The translations under genes and the position numbers were made by a program. From Acidobacteriota bacterium (lineage in GTDB: Bacteria; Acidobacteriota; Thermoanaerobaculia; Gp7-AA8): a stretch of 64,000 nucleotides of DNA. Below are positions 50,607 to 59,301 of the stretch, piece after piece. Where the stretch lies: positions 186,001-250,000 of the forward strand of contig QHVT01000005.1 in NCBI GenBank assembly GCA_003223645.1. The letters are read 5' to 3'. The notes beneath the pieces are model-generated. The model had not been told where the DNA came from. It saw nothing but the letters and a program-made list of their open reading frames with translations, and did no database searches. Positions within the stretch are counted from its first letter, which is position 1. Every line of letters begins with the position of its first letter.

Positions 50607-50958
50607 GGGGGCGTACCGGCTTCGACGGGGACTCGTCGGGGTCGTGGTTGCATGCCGAGCTCGATCAACTCGTAAACCTGATCGAAAAACACAAACGCGA
50701 ACACTGATTTCGCTCTCGCGGCTTAATTAACCACGAGCGCTCGCCCACCGCCCGCTCACGGCGATGGGACCGAGCGTCATGATGTGAGCTGGTGCCACGC
50801 GTAACGCCTACGCGCGCGGCACGAGATCAAGAGGCTGGTCCGCGTCCGGTTCCCGCTCTCCGGACAAGGCGTGGACGAGATTAAACGGAGAGAAACGCAT
50901 GTAGGAGCCACACCACCACAGTTTTCGGACGCGGGTTCGACTCCCGCCGCCTCCACCA
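50607..50958 (+). ncRNA. ssrA: Transfer-messenger RNA (tmRNA), intact copy
   Basis: The 5' end GGGGGCGTACCGGCTTCGAC and 3' end CGCCTCCACCA pair as the tRNA-like acceptor stem, and the T-arm is CGGGTTCGACTCCCG. The tag frame 50697-50726 reads GCG AAC ACT GAT TTC GCT CTC GCG GCT TAA, giving ANTDFALAA, a normal ALAA-type degradation tag. Length is about 352 nt. It rescues stalled ribosomes with SmpB. The gene is the integration target for the following islands: the last 25 bases recur at 54375-54399, the last 243 at 55863-56105, and a degenerate end at 59279-59301. No terminator hairpin follows this copy directly. Confidence 0.95.
50934..50958 (+). other. Attachment-site-like direct repeat 1 (ssrA 3' end)
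   Basis: The 25-base T-arm and acceptor end of ssrA, GGTTCGACTCCCGCCGCC plus TCCACCA. It is repeated exactly at 54375-54399 and 56081-56105, the pattern left by integrases that target tmRNA genes. Confidence 0.85.
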
Positions 50959-51067
50959 ACGAAAGTGCTTTTACTTCATTGACTTACGGTCATCGGCTTG
51001 GCCGCGTACTGCCCAAGAGTGGACAATCTGTCGGCCGCCACGGCACTCCGGTTCAACGGGCCGTCGT

Positions 51068-54000
51068 TCATGCTCGCAGGGACCACAGCGTAAAGGTGCC
51101 GCGAAAGCCCTTCATCGCTTCACCAGCGTGGCGCTTCCACTTGAGCCCTTGATGTCGCTCTGCGCGGAGAGCATGAATATCTTCGTGCGCCCTGTCGCTC
51201 AGCCACACGTTAGCGCCTTTCGCCGCCCCGACAACGCGCGCCGCAAAGTTAACTGTCCCTCCGAACACGTCATCCTCTTCGATTTGCATCGCACCCACAT
51301 GGATCCCGGCTCGAACCTGAATTTGCCGATCCCCTGGCGCTTCTTGAAGAGCAAGCGAAAAGTCCAGTGCCTCCTCCACACGACGAAACGCGACCATGAA
51401 ACTGTCGCCAATCGTCTTTATCTCCCGTCCGCGATACTGCGCCAAGAGCTTACGGGCTTGTGCGAAATGACTGCGTCGCACCACATTCATCCGCTCGCTT
51501 CCGATTCGATTCTCCAAAGCCGTGGAACCCACTACGTCTGTAAAGACGATGGCCAGCATGGCACGCGCGTCACCAGCCCAGCCGACAAAGCTTTCAGTGT
51601 GCGTTTCGCCGCTTGCGGATACAATCAGGGCGTCAAAATCACGCTGACGGTCAGCAGACCTATCCATGACCGCCACTTGCGACGGGTACTTCGCACCGAG
51701 CCGCTCTTCGGGCTCGACGATCGCCACCTTTGAACCACAGGGGCACTCGAACTCTCGCTTGCCTTTCTCGCGCAGAATCTTCACGTATCGCTCTGGCACT
51801 GGCGACGCACACTCCACGCAAATAAAGTAGCGCGTCAGATCGATGGACCCATCAATCGCACGGCGCCGCAAGTGCGAATGGACGTAGTCTTCGAAATGGA
51901 AACGGGTTTGTTCGCTGGCCTCCGAGTCGAAGAAAAGAAGCACTTGGCCATGACCCTCGTCAGCAAACTCTCGCACAAAGATTCCACAACCTCCGCCAGC
52001 CGTCGCGCTAAAGACAGCGGCATTGCGCCACATTTTGGTGCGATCGGTAGCAAACAGGCCGCTGTGACTAAGCCTTACCGCAAGCGTCGAGTAGATGCTC
52101 TGTACTGGCCCATCGAACGAAATTACAACCGCCGTTCCTTCTGGTTCTGGCGCCGCGGAGTAGTCGCGGTTAAACTGTGACGGAAATACCAGATATCGAC
52201 CGTTGTCGGCGTTCTCTCTTAGTGCAAGATCATGCTTGACGAGTTCCTCGACGGTGGCATGAAGCAATAGTTGCTCTTGGCCCCTGTCCGCAATCTTCTG
52301 CTCGTTTGGCACGAAGAATCGTCCACCGAGTGCGTCATCCTCTGAGATCGAGCCGAATCCATCAGGCTCGTTCTTCGCGTGATTGACGATCGCCGACGCG
52401 TAGGCATCGAGTAGTTCCGGCTGAAGCAGAACATATCCACCGAAGCTTAAACGTCGGATAAGGTCGCGATTTTCTAACCGGCCGATGCATGTCTCAAATT
52501 CGGCCCGCGTCGCATTATCGCGACCGAACTCGTCGTGAAGCTGCGATACAGCGGCGAGTAACCGTCCACTTTCCTTGATCCGCAACAGAAAGGCTTTGAT
52601 TTCTGCAAACAGCCGTTCGGAGCTTACTACCGGCAGATATGGCCACGGAATTGCCGATTTGACGGCGGTACGAAGGTCGTCGATCTGCCATCCCTCTTTA
52701 GCACTTGTCTCGAAATAGCCATCGAAGCCGAACTCTACGCAGAACGCTTTGATGCGCGCTTTGCTGACGGACACGGCACCCCGATCAGTGCGCGCAGAAA
52801 CTAAGAACTTCTTCATCGGTACCGACCGCGATCCACCGCGCGTATGAGCCAAGCGTAGCGCCCGCTCCCAGTGACGAACACCCGATAAGGGATCCGTTTC
52901 GCTGCGCGCGTCGAACACCACAAGCGCAACCGCAACCTCGTTCAAGTGCAACTGATGGATTATGCGGTATCCCGGCTGGCCGGCGAGGTCCCAGAGTAGC
53001 GTTTCGCGAGTTTGACGTCGATTAGGACCAATGGATGTTTCTTCCGAATCGAACGTCCACACGTGGCGCCCTGGCGTCGAATCGGTGGCTTCGAAGGGTT
53101 GGCCGTTTAGCACGAGGCTAAGACCGGATTTCCCCACACCGGTATCGCCTACGAGCACAACTTTGGCGTTCACATAATGGATTGCGGTGTCGCTCCGTTG
53201 CCCAAGCAGAACATCTGCGTCGAACTGCCAGAGACGTATAGCCCGCGCAGATGGGTTCGCGCCCCGAGACACGACCGAGGCAAGCAACGGTAACGTCGGA
53301 TGGAACGCAAGCGAATGTTGCGAAACGTCAGCTGCGATAGGGGCGTCGAGAATGGCAGACGTTTCCCAGGTCTCACAATTCCAAACTCGGATTGTCGAGT
53401 CCAATGACCGCGAGGCCAAAAAGGCGCCGTCTGGCGAGAAGGCTAGCGCGTCGACCACGTCGGTGTGTCCTTCGAGCGCGCAGACCAACTCGCCCGTCAT
53501 GGGATCCCTCACGTCGATTGCATTGCCAGGGGCGGAACTTGCGAAAAACTGACGATGCGGATGAAAGCATACCGCAAGCGTGTCGTTGCGCGAGTCATCC
53601 GTGAACCGAGATTCGTGAAGACACTTTCCCGTGGCAACGTTCCATGACCGTACGGCCTTGTCGCCGCAGGTCGCCACGATTTCAGCCGCTGCATGAAATG
53701 CGACTCCTCTGGCCCACCGCGCATGGTCTAGAGATCTGATTAACTGGTATCCGGGCACGCTCCAGACGCGCACATTAGATCCGCCCCAAGTGCTCAGTAA
53801 GCGACCATCGACGCTATAGGCGACTTGCCAAATCGGGCCTTGGAGGATCTTTTCTGTCTCACCGGTCGCTACGTCGATGACTTGAGCGTGGTGCTGCTGG
53901 CTTCCGCACGCCAGCAGTTGACCATCAGGATGAAACGCGAGTGAAAAGACCTCTCGGTGATTACCAAGCACCCGAAGCGGTCGTCCCGTCGCGAGATCCC

Positions 54001-54211
54001 AGATCTTCAACGGGCCATCCGTGGAAGAGGTCACGAGAGTATGGCTTCGAGGATCGAATGCGAAGGAACAAATGGAATCGGTGTCGTCAAGCGTTTGCAG
54101 TAGCTCGAAACTGGACGGAGGTCTCTGGTGGTCGGTACTACTTGGTGCCATACATCCATGAAAGGGTAAAGGCGGCGCGTTGTCAATGAGCGAACGCTTG
54201 TGAGCTTTCAA
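51068..54211 (-). CDS. WD40 - Ras/ROCO-like GTPase - zinc ribbon - class III adenylate cyclase fusion
   Basis: This 1047-residue protein has four parts. Residues 40-335 form WD40 repeats (e.g. LAFHPDGQLL, FSPDGAFLASRSLDSTIRVW). Residues 350-520 form a Ras/Roc-like GTPase with Walker A GDTGVGKS (355-362), G3 DLAGQ (408) and SAK (503). Residues 530-790 resemble a COR-like winged-helix region. A zinc ribbon follows with Cys 798, 801, 823, 825. The C-terminal class III cyclase (885-1045) has metal Asp 892 (FTD) and 936 (GD), purine Lys 932 and Asp 981, and transition-state Asn 988 and Arg 992, which predicts cAMP synthesis. It is a single-protein sensor, switch and second-messenger generator on an ssrA island. 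A start at residue 21 (MAPSST) is possible. Confidence 0.82.
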   Translation of the reverse strand: MKAHKRSLIDNAPPLPFHGCMAPSSTDHQRPPSSFELLQTLDDTDSICSFAFDPRSHTLVTSSTDGPLKIWDLATGRPLRVLGNHREVFSLAFHPDGQLLACGSQQHHAQVIDVATGETEKILQGPIWQVAYSVDGRLLSTWGGSNVRVWSVPGYQLIRSLDHARWARGVAFHAAAEIVATCGDKAVRSWNVATGKCLHESRFTDDSRNDTLAVCFHPHRQFFASSAPGNAIDVRDPMTGELVCALEGHTDVVDALAFSPDGAFLASRSLDSTIRVWNCETWETSAILDAPIAADVSQHSLAFHPTLPLLASVVSRGANPSARAIRLWQFDADVLLGQRSDTAIHYVNAKVVLVGDTGVGKSGLSLVLNGQPFEATDSTPGRHVWTFDSEETSIGPNRRQTRETLLWDLAGQPGYRIIHQLHLNEVAVALVVFDARSETDPLSGVRHWERALRLAHTRGGSRSVPMKKFLVSARTDRGAVSVSKARIKAFCVEFGFDGYFETSAKEGWQIDDLRTAVKSAIPWPYLPVVSSERLFAEIKAFLLRIKESGRLLAAVSQLHDEFGRDNATRAEFETCIGRLENRDLIRRLSFGGYVLLQPELLDAYASAIVNHAKNEPDGFGSISEDDALGGRFFVPNEQKIADRGQEQLLLHATVEELVKHDLALRENADNGRYLVFPSQFNRDYSAAPEPEGTAVVISFDGPVQSIYSTLAVRLSHSGLFATDRTKMWRNAAVFSATAGGGCGIFVREFADEGHGQVLLFFDSEASEQTRFHFEDYVHSHLRRRAIDGSIDLTRYFICVECASPVPERYVKILREKGKREFECPCGSKVAIVEPEERLGAKYPSQVAVMDRSADRQRDFDALIVSASGETHTESFVGWAGDARAMLAIVFTDVVGSTALENRIGSERMNVVRRSHFAQARKLLAQYRGREIKTIGDSFMVAFRRVEEALDFSLALQEAPGDRQIQVRAGIHVGAMQIEEDDVFGGTVNFAARVVGAAKGANVWLSDRAHEDIHALRAERHQGLKWKRHAGEAMKGFRGTFTLWSLRA

Positions 54212-54374
54212 AAGTGTGCGGATTTGGTTCGAGTTGCCTCATAACTCCGATGCGACGCGGTCGTGCGGTTCGCCCGCGTACTCAATACGTACTGCGGATA
54301 GGATTCTTCAGCGGTTCGGGCAGGTTTAGCGGTATAGTGTTTTATACCTTACTGAAACTAAAAGAGTACGGATA

Positions 54375-54399
54375 GGTTCGACTCCCGCCGCCTCCACCA
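54375..54399 (+). other. Attachment-site-like direct repeat 2
   Basis: Exact copy of the last 25 bases of ssrA, preceded by unrelated sequence (GAGTACGGATA). It marks the distal end of island A. Confidence 0.85.
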
Positions 54400-55862: not shown

Positions 55863-56105
55863 CGCGGCTTAAATTAACCACGAGCGCTCGCCCACCGCCC
55901 GCTCACGGCGATGGGACCGAGTGTCATGATGTGAGCTGGTGCCGCGCGTAACGCCTACGCGCGCGTCACGAGATCAAGAGGCTGGTCCGCGTCCGGTTCC
56001 CGCTCTCCGGACAAGGCGTGGACGAGATTTAACGGAGAGAAACGCATGTAGGAGCCACACCACCACAGTTTTCGGACGCGGGTTCGACTCCCGCCGCCTC
56101 CACCA
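55863..56105 (+). pseudogene. Partial ssrA copy (3' two thirds of tmRNA)
   Basis: The copy begins at the last tag codons (CGCGGCTTAA) and runs to the acceptor end, matching 50717-50958 with about five changes: an inserted A after the stop, C to T, A to G, G to T and A to T. One change (GGCAC to GTCAC) breaks pairing in a pseudoknot stem, so it is not under full selection. It lacks the 5' acceptor strand and the tag and cannot be a functional tmRNA. Confidence 0.85.
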
Positions 56106-56131
56106 AATCAGATTCCAGCACGATCCAAAGA

Positions 56132-56175
56132 CAGCCGCGAAACTTACTCAGAGTAAGGCTTTGCGGCTCTTTTTG
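56132..56175 (+). terminator. Hairpin terminator after the partial ssrA copy
   Basis: AGCCGC...GCGGCT encloses an inner CTTACTC/GAGTAAG stem and is followed by CTTTTTGTG. It lies 27 bases after the CCA end, the expected place for the ssrA terminator, which is missing after the intact copy. It may be the original ssrA terminator carried outward by integration. Confidence 0.75.
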
Positions 56176-56201
56176 TGTCTACTGGCGTCCGGTGACATGC
56201 A

Positions 56202-56510
56202 TTGAGATCCGGGGACGCGAAATGGAATGCTCTCGCGCGGACCGCGATCGATCTCGGCGCTCGCATCGCGCGGCTACAGGGCATAGAAACGGAGAAGGCG
56301 ATCGAGGTGCGATTGCCGGAGCGATACCGCGCATGGATCGATGACGACGGGTCATTCGGGGCGTTCACGCCTGCGCGACACGGCTCGGTTCTCGGGCACC
56401 TTCATGACATGGTCTCCGTCCAAGTACCGGGCGTCCGGAACATGCAAGAAATGCTCTTTGGGCCTCTACCCCTGGTCGAGCCCAAGCTGATCGCTATACT
56501 GACCGAATGA
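56202..56510 (+). CDS. Small protein of unknown function, first gene of the island B operon
   Basis: This 102-residue protein is read from TTG 56202 (MRSGDAKWNALARTAIDLGA) and ends overlapping the methyltransferase ATG by 4 bases. It contains IEVRLPERYRAWIDDDGSFG and LFGPLPLVEPKLIAILTE. I do not recognise it. The overlap and the intact frame argue that it is a real partner of the methyltransferase, but it could also be the C-terminal remnant of a longer gene truncated by integration next to ssrA. Confidence 0.5.
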   Translation: MRSGDAKWNALARTAIDLGARIARLQGIETEKAIEVRLPERYRAWIDDDGSFGAFTPARHGSVLGHLHDMVSVQVPGVRNMQEMLFGPLPLVEPKLIAILTE

Positions 56511-57331
56511 CTTCCATGCAACCGCTGCTGCGGTGGGCCGGGAGCAAGCGAAAGCTTCTCCCTGAGTTGGCACGCTACTGGTCGCCTGGTTTCTCGCGCT
56601 ACGTAGAACCATTCGCGGGATCTGCATGCCTCTTCTTCCGCCTCGCTCCGGAACGAGCACTGATCGGAGACATCAACGAGGAACTCGTTCATGTTTACAA
56701 ACAGGTGAAAAAGGACTCCGCATCGATCGGGAAGGCACTCCGTCGCATGAAGATCGGACGCGACGAATACCTCGCGGTTCGATCTCGTAACCCCGCTTTG
56801 CTTTCGCCTCCCGTGCGCGCTGCTCGCTTCATCTATTTGAATCGTTTCTGCTTCAACGGCCTCTGGCGAACCAACCAGCAGGGTCGCTTCAACGTTCCGT
56901 ACGGCGGTCGAAAGTGCGGTCAGCTTCCCACGGAAAGCCAACTCCAGGCGGTCGCCCGCCGGTTGAAAAGTACACGACTGGTCGCTGGAGACTTCGAAAC
57001 CGTTCTCCGGCAGACGAAAGCGGGAGACTTTGTCTACATGGACCCGCCATTTCGGGTGACGGCTCGGCGCGTCTTTACTCAATACGATCGAAACGCCTTT
57101 AGTCACTCGGACCTTCTGCGGCTGCGGACGTGGATGGAACGTCTCGACGCACGCCGGATCACCTTCTTGGTGAGCTATGCGGAGAGCGATGAGTCAGCGT
57201 TCTTGAGCGAGGGTTTCGCAACCCGCAAATTATCGGTGCGACGGAACATTGCCGGGTTCACCGCGCGCCGTCGCGCATTCAGCGAGGTTCTCATCTCCAA
57301 CATAAACCTCGGAGGAGATTCTCCGTGCTGA
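56507..57331 (+). CDS. Dam-type (D12 class) DNA adenine N6-methyltransferase
   Basis: This 274-residue MTase has the alpha-class order: SAM motif LLRWAGSKRKLLPEL (FxGxG-like FAGSACLFFRL at 36-46), IGDINEELVHVYK, the D12 signature LNRFCFNGLWRTNQQGRFNV, and catalytic DPPF at 179-182 (DPPY/F). It would methylate adenine in a short recognition site. No restriction endonuclease is adjacent; the partners are a ParB-like and a phosphoribosyltransferase-like protein. It overlaps both neighbours (4 and 7 bases), so the four genes are one coupled unit. Confidence 0.88.
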   Translation: MTSMQPLLRWAGSKRKLLPELARYWSPGFSRYVEPFAGSACLFFRLAPERALIGDINEELVHVYKQVKKDSASIGKALRRMKIGRDEYLAVRSRNPALLSPPVRAARFIYLNRFCFNGLWRTNQQGRFNVPYGGRKCGQLPTESQLQAVARRLKSTRLVAGDFETVLRQTKAGDFVYMDPPFRVTARRVFTQYDRNAFSHSDLLRLRTWMERLDARRITFLVSYAESDESAFLSEGFATRKLSVRRNIAGFTARRRAFSEVLISNINLGGDSPC

Positions 57332-58347
57332 CAGCGAAGTCGGATCGTCATGGACAGAGTACCTTCATACCGCGCGGAAAGCTCTTGCACCTCCGGCCAA
57401 GTCAACTCAAACCAAACCCGCAGAACCCCCGTCGGCTTTTCGATCCTGATCCGCTGAGTGACCTAAAGGAGAACATTCGCGTTCACGGGGTTCTTGTCCC
57501 CATCACTGTCTACCAACTTAAGGGACAAGAGAAGTACGCCATTCTGGACGGCGAGCGGCGACTCAGGTGCTGCGTTGAGCTGGAAGAAGAAGGCAAGCAG
57601 GTAACGATCCCGGCGAACGTTGTCGAACAACCTGACAAAGTCGCGGGTCTTCTCTACATGTTCTCGATCCACAACTTTCGAGAGCAATGGGAACTGATGC
57701 CCGTCGCGTACAGCCTTCGAGTTGTCATGAAGGAACTGGGCGAAGAGAACCCGCTTAAGTTGTCCAAATTGACGGGGCTGAGTGTCAAGCAGATCGAACG
57801 ATGCAAGATCCTCCTGAACTTCCCGGACAAGTTCCAGCAGATGTCCCTGGAGGTCGACCCCTCCGAGCGAATTCCCGCGAACTTCTGGATCGAGTTGCAC
57901 CCAGTGTTGGAGCTAACGCAGAAGCACCTGCCGGACGTTTACGAGCAATTCGGTAGGGATGGGGTTACCGAGAAATTCGTCGAGAAGTACAGAGAGGGAG
58001 CAATCAAGAGTGTAATCCACTTCCGACGCATTTCTGAAGCCTTCGAGGTAAACGAGGAAGACCGATCAGGCCTTGTGAAGGCTTTGCGTCGCTATGTGAA
58101 CGAACCCGCCCTTGAGACTCGCTCTGCGTTCGACGCCTTTCTTGCGGATAGGAAGGGCCGAACTCAAACAGCTATCCGAGCGTGCGACACATTCGTCACA
58201 CAGCTTGAGAAATCTCGCGTAGTTCACACTAGCGAGGATCGCGAGTCCCTGATCGAGCATCTTCGCGACGTTCAGCGCTATGTATCCGATCTTCTCGATC
58301 GGCTCGAAGGTGGCGACGCTCCGAGAAGCTCGGAGAGCAAGCCCTAA
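57325..58347 (+). CDS. ParB/Srx-fold protein with helix-turn-helix
   Basis: This 340-residue protein has a ParB N-terminal fold (LHLRPSQLKPNPQNPRRLFD, then GVLVPITVY and ILDGERRLRCCVEL with the GERR box at 76-79) and a central HTH (LKLSKLTGLSVKQIERCKIL). A C-terminal helical region follows. GERR-box ParB proteins bind CTP and act as DNA clamps or, in some families, as nucleases. There is no ParA gene nearby, so this is not a partition locus. GGAGGAG precedes GTG 57325. It sits between the Dam MTase and the PRTase-like gene. Confidence 0.85.
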   Translation: MLTAKSDRHGQSTFIPRGKLLHLRPSQLKPNPQNPRRLFDPDPLSDLKENIRVHGVLVPITVYQLKGQEKYAILDGERRLRCCVELEEEGKQVTIPANVVEQPDKVAGLLYMFSIHNFREQWELMPVAYSLRVVMKELGEENPLKLSKLTGLSVKQIERCKILLNFPDKFQQMSLEVDPSERIPANFWIELHPVLELTQKHLPDVYEQFGRDGVTEKFVEKYREGAIKSVIHFRRISEAFEVNEEDRSGLVKALRRYVNEPALETRSAFDAFLADRKGRTQTAIRACDTFVTQLEKSRVVHTSEDRESLIEHLRDVQRYVSDLLDRLEGGDAPRSSESKP

Positions 58348-59175
58348 ATGCTCGATCTCCTGCGCGCCTACTTTCGGGCGATGCACGAGTTCCGCGACTA
58401 TTCACCAAAGAAGGTGAGCACGGGCAGCGTTTCTGAATGGCTAGACCCCTGGGGGAAAGGCGACCGCGCGCTGATTCTGAAGCTCCTCCGTCACGTCAAA
58501 TATGTTACGGCGTCGCAGTTTCGACACGCTCTGATTTCACAGAACAAGGCTTTGCTCGATCACCTTCGTCGGTCGGAGGTGCCCGCAAAGAAGGTGATCT
58601 ACGTGTCAATCCACGACGCGGGCAGCAGCAGCCCGGCGGTCCTGAATGAGCTTCGTGATCGCGCGCAACTGGTCCAGCGAGGGTGCAGCTTCGTGGATGG
58701 ACACAACATCGAAGGCATTTCTCGGACTACGGAGAAACTAGAGGACGGCGCGATCGTGTATGTCGACGACTTTCTTGCATCCGGTAACCAACTGCTGGGC
58801 GAGCGAAACCGCATCGCCGAGTACATCATCGGGAGTTTTTCGGAGTTCGCACTAGCCGTTTGCGTTTGCGAGGAAGCGGTCGCGAGCCTAGGGAGAGTCG
58901 GAGTCGAGACCCGATCGCAGTACGTTCACAGCCGAGCAGAAAGGCCACTGCATGATTGCTCAACCATCCTCGGGGCCGACGAAAAGGCGCGATTGATCGA
59001 GATATGTACGCAAATTGATAAGCGTGCACCCCTAGGTTACGAAGCGATGGCTACGATGTACATCCTGCATCGCAATGCTCCTAACACCGTTCCCCGCGTC
59101 TTACGTGGAAGCACGCGGCAATCGCCGCGTATTGGGCTTTTCCCTCGATCAGACGACCTACCTGTCGACAATTAG
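58348..59175 (+). CDS. Phosphoribosyltransferase-like protein (candidate conflict-system effector)
   Basis: This 275-residue protein starts on the base after the ParB stop. The segment DGAIVYVDDFLASGNQLLGE (133-152) matches the PRPP loop of type I phosphoribosyltransferases (hydrophobics, DD, x, SG, then polar). The N-terminal half (KKVIYVSIHDAGSSSPAVLN) could supply the hood and pyrophosphate site. It is not a known salvage enzyme. PRTase-fold proteins of this sort have been proposed as effectors in bacterial conflict operons; that role here is inferred from the fold and the MTase-ParB context. Confidence 0.7.
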   Translation: MLDLLRAYFRAMHEFRDYSPKKVSTGSVSEWLDPWGKGDRALILKLLRHVKYVTASQFRHALISQNKALLDHLRRSEVPAKKVIYVSIHDAGSSSPAVLNELRDRAQLVQRGCSFVDGHNIEGISRTTEKLEDGAIVYVDDFLASGNQLLGERNRIAEYIIGSFSEFALAVCVCEEAVASLGRVGVETRSQYVHSRAERPLHDCSTILGADEKARLIEICTQIDKRAPLGYEAMATMYILHRNAPNTVPRVLRGSTRQSPRIGLFPRSDDLPVDN

Positions 59176-59278
59176 GCAACCTGCGTTCAGTTTGAGCTGG
59201 CACCGCGTGGGGTACGTTCCGGGCGTGTTCCTCGTTGTCGGACAAAATCTCTGATCCAGCAATACATTAGCTCGCTCT

Positions 59279-59301
59279 TCGACTCCTGCCGCCTTCACCA
59301 A
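59279..59301 (+). other. Degenerate ssrA-end attachment repeat
   Basis: TCGACTCCTGCCGCCTTCACCA matches the ssrA end TCGACTCCCGCCGCCTCCACCA with two mismatches. It marks the likely distal boundary of island B and suggests a fourth ssrA-derived end. Confidence 0.6.

What the first reader, a model, noticed from the sequence alone, without database searches (positions are those of the whole stretch)
51068..54211. Single 1047-residue protein joining WD40 sensor, Ras/ROCO GTPase, zinc ribbon and a complete class III adenylate cyclase
All catalytic cyclase positions appear present (Asp892, Asp936, Lys932, Asp981, Asn988, Arg992), and the GTPase has Walker A, DLAGQ and SAK. This gives a complete path from propeller binding through a GTP switch to cAMP in one chain. 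It is the only gene of an island at ssrA with no mobility gene, which points to selection for the cargo itself. Bacterial GTPase-cyclase fusions with WD40 are rare in my knowledge and could be a defence or stress-signalling device.
Basis: partly seen in the sequence, partly recalled or inferred. Interest (0 to 1): 0.78.

Follow-up and report, generated by a model that had tools for sequence, protein, structure and literature searches.

The report
One-protein sensor switch with cyclase
This is a single bacterial protein that joins a variable sensor, a GTP switch predicted to have the same fold as the Parkinson's-disease protein LRRK2, and an enzyme that should make a cyclic-nucleotide signal; most relatives read carry a TIR domain in the enzyme's place, so it looks like a one-gene immune-type receptor carried on a small mobile DNA unit, though nothing has been tested in the laboratory.

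Summary
In detail: window 51068-54211(-) encodes an intact 1047-aa protein with a WD40 propeller, a Ras/Roc GTPase, zinc-ribbon cysteines and a class III cyclase with all six named catalytic residues. The gene is the sole cargo of a 3441-bp unit between exact 25-nt repeats of the tmRNA 3' end, without integrase. Among 78 relatives read (14 named phyla, Archaea included) the C-terminal enzyme is exchanged: of 72 readable tails 54 match TIR, 20 cyclase (some both), 2 PNP, 1 DUF4062. The cyclase has lost catalytic residues in the three tails with PNP or DUF4062 and in one cut by a contig end; otherwise it is intact but for one K-to-R. In the window's clade Roc-COR is about 71-73% identical, WD40 only 38%, near the background between clades. 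Best reading (untested): a one-protein, NLR-like conflict receptor whose Roc-COR dimer switches on cyclic-nucleotide synthesis; a new variant of predicted AP-GTPase/Roco conflict systems, probably neither housekeeping cyclase nor Pycsar.

The parts
50607..50958 (+). tmRNA gene (ssrA), integration target; tag ANTDFALAA
   Evidence: ARAGORN; Rfam RF00023 189 bits
50934..50958 (+). left 25-nt direct repeat = 3' end of tmRNA (attL-like)
   Evidence: the repeat finder D3; three copies genome-wide at <=3 mismatches
54375..54399 (+). right 25-nt direct repeat, identical (attR-like); unit 50959-54399 = 3441 bp
54278..54293 (+). GTACTCAATACGTACT motif near the right end, shared with tmRNA/tRNA-linked units in relatives
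51068..54211 (-). P0001 gene: WD40-Roc-COR-zinc ribbon-class III cyclase, 1047 aa
53222..54109 (-). seven-bladed WD40 propeller, residues ~35-330 (putative sensor, variable among relatives)
   Evidence: full-length Foldseek's 50 listed hits are WD40 propellers
52622..53179 (-). Roc GTPase, residues ~345-530 (P-loop 355-362, DLAGQ 408-412, ARTD 473-476, SAK 503-505)
51842..52621 (-). COR-type domain, residues ~531-790 (boundaries approximate; seen by fold, not by Pfam)
51737..51820 (-). zinc-ribbon-like cysteines C798, C801, C823, C825 (two invariant, two at 90% or more in alignments)
51605..51676 (-). linker helix, residues 846-869, before the exchangeable C-terminal enzyme
   Evidence: secondary structure of model
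51071..51559 (-). class III nucleotidyl cyclase, residues 885-1047, six catalytic residues present (effector slot)

Best explanation
P0001 is a one-protein, NLR-like conflict (probably anti-phage) receptor built on a Roco GTPase. The propeller binds an unknown, changing trigger; the Roc-COR tandem is a nucleotide-dependent dimer switch; when switched, the two C-terminal cyclase domains, which must pair to form active sites, come together and make a cyclic nucleotide (most likely cAMP, from Lys932/Asp981; specificity is open). The product acts as an alarm through cNMP-binding proteins of the host, or its synthesis drains nucleotide. It travels as a single-gene payload on a small tmRNA-targeted unit that does not encode an integrase. 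Shown: domains, catalytic residues, predicted Roc-COR fold, exchange of the C-terminal enzyme among relatives, divergence of the sensor, horizontal spread, bounding repeats. Inferred: ligand sensing, GTP gating, dimer activation, product, defence role, downstream target.
For: Fold of residues 335-875: Foldseek's first 23 hits are all Roco proteins (LRRK1, LRRK2, C. tepidum Roco, M. barkeri Roco2), 22 of them over 525-579 columns; LRRK2 Z 22.1, rmsd 5.0, 448 residues. Effector exchange: of 72 readable tails 54 match TIR_2, 20 Guanylate_cyc, 2 PNP_UDP_1, 1 DUF4062, overlapping where both occur; more distant relatives carry metallophosphoesterase (one with CHAT) or DUF4365, the last with an N-terminal TIR by eye. 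On the Roc-COR tree (quick method) the label cyclase/TIR/other needs at least 6 changes. The six catalytic residues are intact in 17 of 22 cyclase rows; the five exceptions are L049 and L051 (PNP added), L078 (DUF4062 added), L059 (contig end) and L028 (K-to-R). Sensor divergence: 45 pairs of ten clade members, WD40 37.8% vs Roc 72.8, COR 70.6, cyclase 61.9; WD40 against TIR-type relatives 34.8%; WD40 dN/dS above Roc and COR in three groups of close TIR-type relatives. Spread: the 13-row clade holding P0001 (SH-aLRT 100) covers five phyla and both prokaryotic domains by record title, besides the window's host; the Methanosarcina copy lies near diphthamide-synthesis and exosome genes. L025 has a tandem paralogue with a bSEFIR-type tail. 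An integrase lies near the gene in L030 and on the Calothrix plasmid. cNMP cyclases and AP-GTPases are both named in predicted conflict systems (PMC7159879 and PMC8195603, passages and one section).
Against: No activity, ligand or phenotype is known. P0001 matches no known-system model in PADLOC except a weak repeat hit. No gene family recurs in more than 2 of 19 cyclase-type neighbourhoods (204 mechanically chosen ORFs). Of 10 hand-picked neighbours, 4 had a PADLOC hit at 1e-5, one of them a generic ABC ATPase: no control, so weak either way. No relative of the core was found in phage or IMG/VR contigs. Pycsar cyclases need a receptor gene; none is here. dN/dS never exceeds 1 in the means, and that test used TIR-type, not cyclase-type, relatives. 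WD40s are about 35% alike by default, so fast change and propeller replacement cannot be told apart. Only the best 78 of 251 stretches were read, so the tail counts favour close relatives. The model is weak at 979-984, which holds D981.
Confidence: 0.57

Rival explanations
1. An ordinary signalling adenylate cyclase: the WD40-Roc-COR part senses a cellular or nutritional cue and sets cAMP levels for CRP-like regulators of the host; no conflict role.
For: Catalytic residues of an ATP-type cyclase; closest solved sequence is M. avium Ma1120; the host genome has 17 places matching cNMP_binding.
Against: Sporadic (own genome only among 60 relatives), on a repeat-bounded unit, cross-domain spread, and the same slot is usually TIR among the tails read.
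Confidence: 0.22
2. A Pycsar-like arrangement: the cyclase makes a pyrimidine cyclic nucleotide read by a receptor encoded elsewhere in the genome.
For: Pycsar uses a cyclase with PycTM or PycTIR effectors (PMC11224242, passages). Seven of 72 tails match one PycC model (best 7.8e-9), others fewer. Cyclase and TIR are fused in L020, L032, L034. By my own alignment of motifs, F890 and K932 could correspond to F60 and K104, two of three UTP residues of AnPycC.
Against: No receptor gene in the unit and no recurrent neighbour in 19 loci; P0001 itself matches no PycC model at E<=0.01; the third AnPycC residue F109 would be S937, and D981 aligns as in Ma1120.
Confidence: 0.14
3. A maintenance or exclusion gene of the mobile unit itself, with any phage defence a by-product.
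For: Sole cargo of an integrase-less unit, next to another unit with D12 methylase, ParB-like protein and PRTase-CE.
Against: Of 40 loci of relatives scanned, 7 have a tRNA in the stretch held and none a tmRNA gene, so the tie to tmRNA is not general; no antidote-like partner recurs.
Confidence: 0.08

Closest known systems
AP-GTPase (Roco) conflict systems predicted by Kaur et al. 2021 (PMC8195603; section 15 read in full, other passages seen)
   Same: AP-GTPase/Roc plus COR in the middle, rapidly evolving repeats N-terminal, exchangeable C-terminal effector (section 15 names GT4, TIR, DRHyd, caspase, trypsin, FGS, EADs among at least 24).
   Different: Section 15 describes LRR sensors and names neither WD40 nor cyclase for this group; the paper's introduction does name WD repeats for STAND and AP-GTPase switches in general. 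Figures and source tables were not available. Here: WD40, cysteine pairs after COR, class III cyclase.
[quoted passage not shown] 2020 (PMC7159879, passages)
   Same: cNMP cyclases are named there as common second-messenger domains in effector positions, and AP-GTPase-COR as a rarer vWA-linked domain.
   Different: Those are multi-gene systems; here one protein with WD40-Roc-COR.
Roco proteins: C. tepidum Roco, M. barkeri Roco2, LRRK1/2
   Same: Predicted Roc-COR fold matches at 13-16% identity.
   Different: A 2019 review says all prokaryotic Rocos identified so far are LRR-RocCOR (PMC6337361, passages); no kinase here, and the WD40 is N-terminal.
Pycsar (PycC plus PycTM/PycTIR)
   Same: Cyclase in an immune role; TIR as partner activity.
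   Different: No separate receptor gene here; cyclase fused behind a GTPase switch; no PycC match for P0001.
Apaf-1/NLR-type STAND receptors
   Same: Repeat sensor, NTP switch and effector (works like).
   Different: The switch is a Ras-like Roc-COR GTPase, not a STAND ATPase; different domain order.
Ma1120, M. avium class III cyclase (PDB 4wp9 and others)
   Same: Closest solved relative of the cyclase domain, catalytic residues align.
   Different: Only the cyclase domain matches.

Membership tests
Roco (Roc-COR) proteins | Roc GTPase domain | tested here: met
   Pfam Roc 46.7 bits, cut-off 27; 73 of 73 members of A3 match Roc at E<=1
Roco (Roc-COR) proteins | COR domain directly after Roc | tested here: met
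   By predicted fold: first 23 Foldseek hits are Roco chains, LRRK2 Z 22.1 over 448 residues. By sequence not seen: none of the 5 Pfam matches of P0001's core is COR, nor is any of the 25 families shown of 103 for 73 members
Prokaryotic Roco group 1 | N-terminal LRR | tested here: not met
   WD40 propeller instead
AP-GTPase conflict systems (Kaur 2021) | Roc-COR core with variable C-terminal effector domains | tested here: met
   72 of 78 loci with readable tails: TIR_2 54, Guanylate_cyc 20, PNP 2, DUF4062 1
AP-GTPase conflict systems (Kaur 2021) | Rapidly evolving N-terminal LRRs | tested here: not met
   N-terminal repeats do diverge fast (WD40 37.8% vs Roc 72.8% in 45 pairs) but they are WD40, not LRR
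AP-GTPase conflict systems (Kaur 2021) | Counter-invader function | not testable with these tools
   a prediction in the section read as well
Class III nucleotidyl cyclase | Two metal Asp, base-specifying Lys/Asp, transition-state Asn/Arg (roles recalled) | tested here: met
   D892, D936, K932, D981, N988, R992; Pfam 59.3 bits
Class III nucleotidyl cyclase | Cyclase activity | not testable with these tools
   needs an assay
Pycsar | Adjacent cyclic-nucleotide receptor/effector gene | tested here: not met
   P0001 alone in its unit; no recurrent neighbour in 19 loci
Pycsar | PycC family match | tested here: not met
   P0001: none at E<=0.01; up to 7 of 72 relatives' tails match a PycC model weakly
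STAND/NLR receptors | STAND ATPase | tested here: not met
   no NACHT/NB-ARC among the 25 families shown of 33 for P0001; the switch is Roc, and for its core all 5 matches are shown, none STAND

The most novel reading that the evidence does not exclude
A class of stand-alone bacterial and archaeal immune receptors in which an LRRK2-like Roc-COR GTPase couples an exchangeable WD40 sensor to an exchangeable killing or signalling enzyme, with the window's form using GTP-gated cyclic-nucleotide synthesis, without any dedicated receptor gene, as the immune output, and travelling here as a single-gene, integrase-less tmRNA unit.
Probability: 0.35. Interest if true: 0.82.

Novelty: new variant of a known kind. 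Interest (0 to 1): 0.62.

Why it matters
Roco GTPases are studied because of LRRK2, yet what prokaryotic Rocos do is largely open. This family offers single-gene Rocos with a readable enzyme output (cyclic nucleotide, or NAD loss for TIR forms) that could show directly how a Roc-COR dimer switches a fused enzyme. If defensive, it would be a Roco-based counterpart of NLR immunity with a cyclase as output, linking WD40 sensing, a GTP switch and nucleotide signalling in one chain.

Tried and rejected
Considered and set aside. (1) Housekeeping cyclase: weakened by sporadic presence. (2) Pycsar: no partner gene, though F890/K932 leave pyrimidine specificity open; I raised this rival from 0.12 to 0.14 and lowered the best reading from 0.58 to 0.57 on rechecking. 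(3) Prophage or plasmid gene: one phage record matches the cyclase part only; none found in IMG/VR contigs by pattern scans; of 22 plasmid records 2 (Calothrix, Nostoc) hold the Roc-COR core, the other 18 listed match the cyclase part only, 2 were not listed. (4) COR by sequence: no Pfam match for P0001; the PDB sequence profile lists Rab-type chains in the 60 shown of 444. (5) A recombinase acting in trans: 7 PF00589 places in the genome, none in the window; the type of the L119/L122 remnants was not recognised by eye among them, not a rigorous test. (6) Promoters/terminators: 1 and 5 found, shuffles 1.4 and 3.9. (7) VIA-align: Rab chains tie with LRRK2 in Z because the GTPase alone scores high; the Roco assignment rests on aligned length and the Foldseek order.

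Limits. The genome scan kept the best 80 of 251 stretches (78 loci). Tail counts leave out L019, L035, L095 (stop inside the match), L086 (frame), L077 and L090 (no tail): 72 of 78 counted. The tree is a quick one; long branches include L004, L005, L008, L093; 6 changes is a minimum, and starred branches force fewer for TIR (2) and four for the pure cyclase label. Domain boundaries are approximate. A fourth close group was one pair whose Roc dS could not be computed. Several relatives are metagenome bins; only L027's surroundings were checked. The amidohydrolase between the two units is called host-like by GC only; it was not found in any of the 10 tmRNA regions of relatives. Literature; no title or abstract start listed there describes WD40-Roc-COR-cyclase proteins; subscription papers and all supplements were out of reach.
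Full report
What is there. The gene at 51068-54211(-) is open over 1047 codons. The full-length AlphaFold2 model is confident overall (pLDDT 85.4, pTM 0.84): 28 strands that make a seven-bladed propeller by my count, the GTPase, a long middle part, the cysteine pairs, a helix at 846-869, and the cyclase; 979-984, with D981, is weak. Residues 1-28 are disordered, so the true start may be the ATG at residue 21. The GTPase lacks a canonical NKxD (it has ARTD; R and D are invariant in alignments A2 and A3).

Between GTPase and cysteines lies a COR-type domain. Pfam gives P0001's core five matches, none COR, but a model of residues 335-875 (pLDDT 87.9, pTM 0.85) has Roco proteins as its first 23 Foldseek hits: LRRK1, LRRK2, C. 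tepidum Roco and M. barkeri Roco2, at 13-16% identity, 22 of them over 525-579 columns. VIA-align matches LRRK2 1323-1867 over 448 residues, Z 22.1, rmsd 5.0; single Rab chains reach nearly the same Z over about 165 residues. So the protein is WD40-Roc-COR-zinc ribbon-cyclase. Its cyclase is closest to M. avium Ma1120 among solved chains.

Where it sits. The 25-nt 3' end of the tmRNA gene is repeated exactly after the gene (50934-50958 and 54375-54399); the 25-mer has three copies in the 6.38-Mb assembly at up to three mismatches, the third ending a 235-nt partial tmRNA copy at 55872-56106. The 3441-bp unit holds only P0001 and no integrase. In ten tmRNA regions fetched from relatives nadC precedes tmRNA in 9 (L124 is a contig end) and GGDEF is found in 7; P0001, the amidohydrolase and the genes of the second unit are found in none of the ten, and what follows tmRNA differs by eye. 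A GTACYNAATACGTACT motif near the window unit's right end has six exact matches in five of 60 genomes (the window's own included) and no control match; by reading, five lie in or at the ends of stretches next to tmRNA and one next to a tRNA-Pro. Two of these genomes (L119, L122) carry, right after tmRNA, the start of a tyrosine-integrase-like frame recognised by eye; both frames stop early. I take the window's unit as a non-autonomous or decayed member of such elements; this is inference.

Relatives. The Roc-COR-zinc core was used to scan the 84,980-species collection: 251 stretches encode relatives, the best 80 were kept as 78 loci. They fall in 14 named phyla by record title, one of them archaeal. 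Among 60 relatives of the host only its own genome holds P0001 at E<=1e-30; 4 of 297 genomes of the phylum, own included, match its C-terminal 713 residues at E<=1e-20, the other three over 196-498 residues of the Roc-COR part. In the Roc-COR tree P0001 lies in a 13-row clade (support 100) with Planctomycetota, Bacteroidota, Pseudomonadota, Verrucomicrobiota and methanogenic archaea; the Methanosarcina copy lies near a diphthamide-synthesis and an exosome gene, as expected in an archaeon. This speaks for horizontal spread.

The enzyme slot is exchanged. Of 72 readable C-terminal tails, 54 match TIR_2, 20 Guanylate_cyc, 2 PNP_UDP_1 and 1 DUF4062, overlapping where both occur; three tails are cyclase followed by TIR (L034 by eye). 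DUF4062 is reported as a family of TIR-like NADases in a 2026 preprint (PMC13174449: start of abstract in a listing and three passages). More distant relatives carry metallophosphoesterase, one with CHAT, or DUF4365. The label cyclase/TIR/other needs at least 6 changes on the tree. The six residues are intact in 17 of 22 cyclase rows. The exceptions: L049, L051 (PNP follows) and L078 (DUF4062 follows) lack two or more, L059 (contig end) lacks three, L028 has R for K. That is what one expects if the cyclase is the working output and becomes dispensable once another effector is added, though three cases are few and TIR-bearing tails keep it.

The sensor diverges. Among ten full-length clade members (45 pairs) Roc is 72.8% identical, COR 70.6%, cyclase 61.9%, WD40 only 37.8%, close to the 34.8% between their WD40s and those of twelve TIR-type relatives. 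In three groups of close TIR-type relatives WD40 dN/dS (0.55, 0.12, 0.10) exceeds Roc (0.15, 0.04, 0.06) and COR (0.17, 0.09, 0.05) but is below 1. In L025 a second WD40-Roc gene follows 61 bp after the first: propellers 50% alike, cores 34%, and a bSEFIR-type tail instead of the cyclase, which hints at propeller exchange.

How it most likely works. Repeat sensor, nucleotide switch and exchangeable enzyme in one chain is the plan of NLR-type receptors. Kaur et al. predicted conflict systems around bacterial AP-GTPase-COR proteins with LRR sensors and at least 24 C-terminal domains (PMC8195603, section 15 read), and named cNMP cyclases as effector-position domains in other conflict systems (PMC7159879, passages). 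Roco proteins dimerise through COR (PMC6337361, passages); class III cyclases form active sites between two subunits (general knowledge). The simplest model is that sensing changes the Roc-COR dimer and so pairs the cyclase domains. The output is probably cAMP, though F890 and K932 would also fit one set of Pycsar residues (my alignment); the host has 17 cNMP-binding places that could read it. Gating, product and purpose are untested. Against a defence role: no known-system model fits P0001, no partner recurs, and no activity has been measured.

Verdict. The proteins are a WD40-bearing branch of Roco proteins with cyclase, TIR or other enzymes; a 2019 review knew only LRR-type prokaryotic Rocos. 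I rate it a new variant of a known (predicted) kind.

Noticed in passing
window 56106-59300: A second integrase-less unit at the same site: D12 adenine methylase, ParB_N protein and PRTase-CE (PADLOC PRTase_III-A hits), preceded by a 235-nt 98% copy of the tmRNA 3' part (55872-56106) and followed by a degenerate copy of the 25-nt repeat (59276-59300, 84%).
   Followed up: partly
window 54278-54293; L119, L122, L124, L137: A 16-nt motif GTACYNAATACGTACT occurs six times in five of 60 genomes (own included), five times in stretches next to tmRNA and once next to tRNA-Pro, with different genes around: perhaps ends of a family of small elements.
   Followed up: partly
L119 (G303) and L122 (G254), just after tmRNA: Start of a tyrosine-integrase-like frame (HLKSCPHTSRSYRRCA...), recognised by eye, stopping early in both: possible integrase remnants at the same site.
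   Followed up: partly
L025:6978-13361: Two tandem WD40-Roc genes, one ending in a cyclase, the next in a bSEFIR-type domain; propellers more alike (50%) than cores (34%).
   Followed up: partly
L124 (G306), stretch after tmRNA: A short TIR-like reading frame (85 aa, by eye) inside another tmRNA-linked stretch of the same host family.
   Followed up: no
L064, L069, L073, L076, L089: Actinobacterial relatives have 685-1271 aa before the Roc-COR core instead of about 330 (first possible start taken); what the extra part is was not examined.
   Followed up: no
L049, L051: Relatives with an eroded cyclase followed by a nucleoside-phosphorylase-like (PNP_UDP_1) domain, possibly another nucleotide-based effector.
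   Followed up: partly
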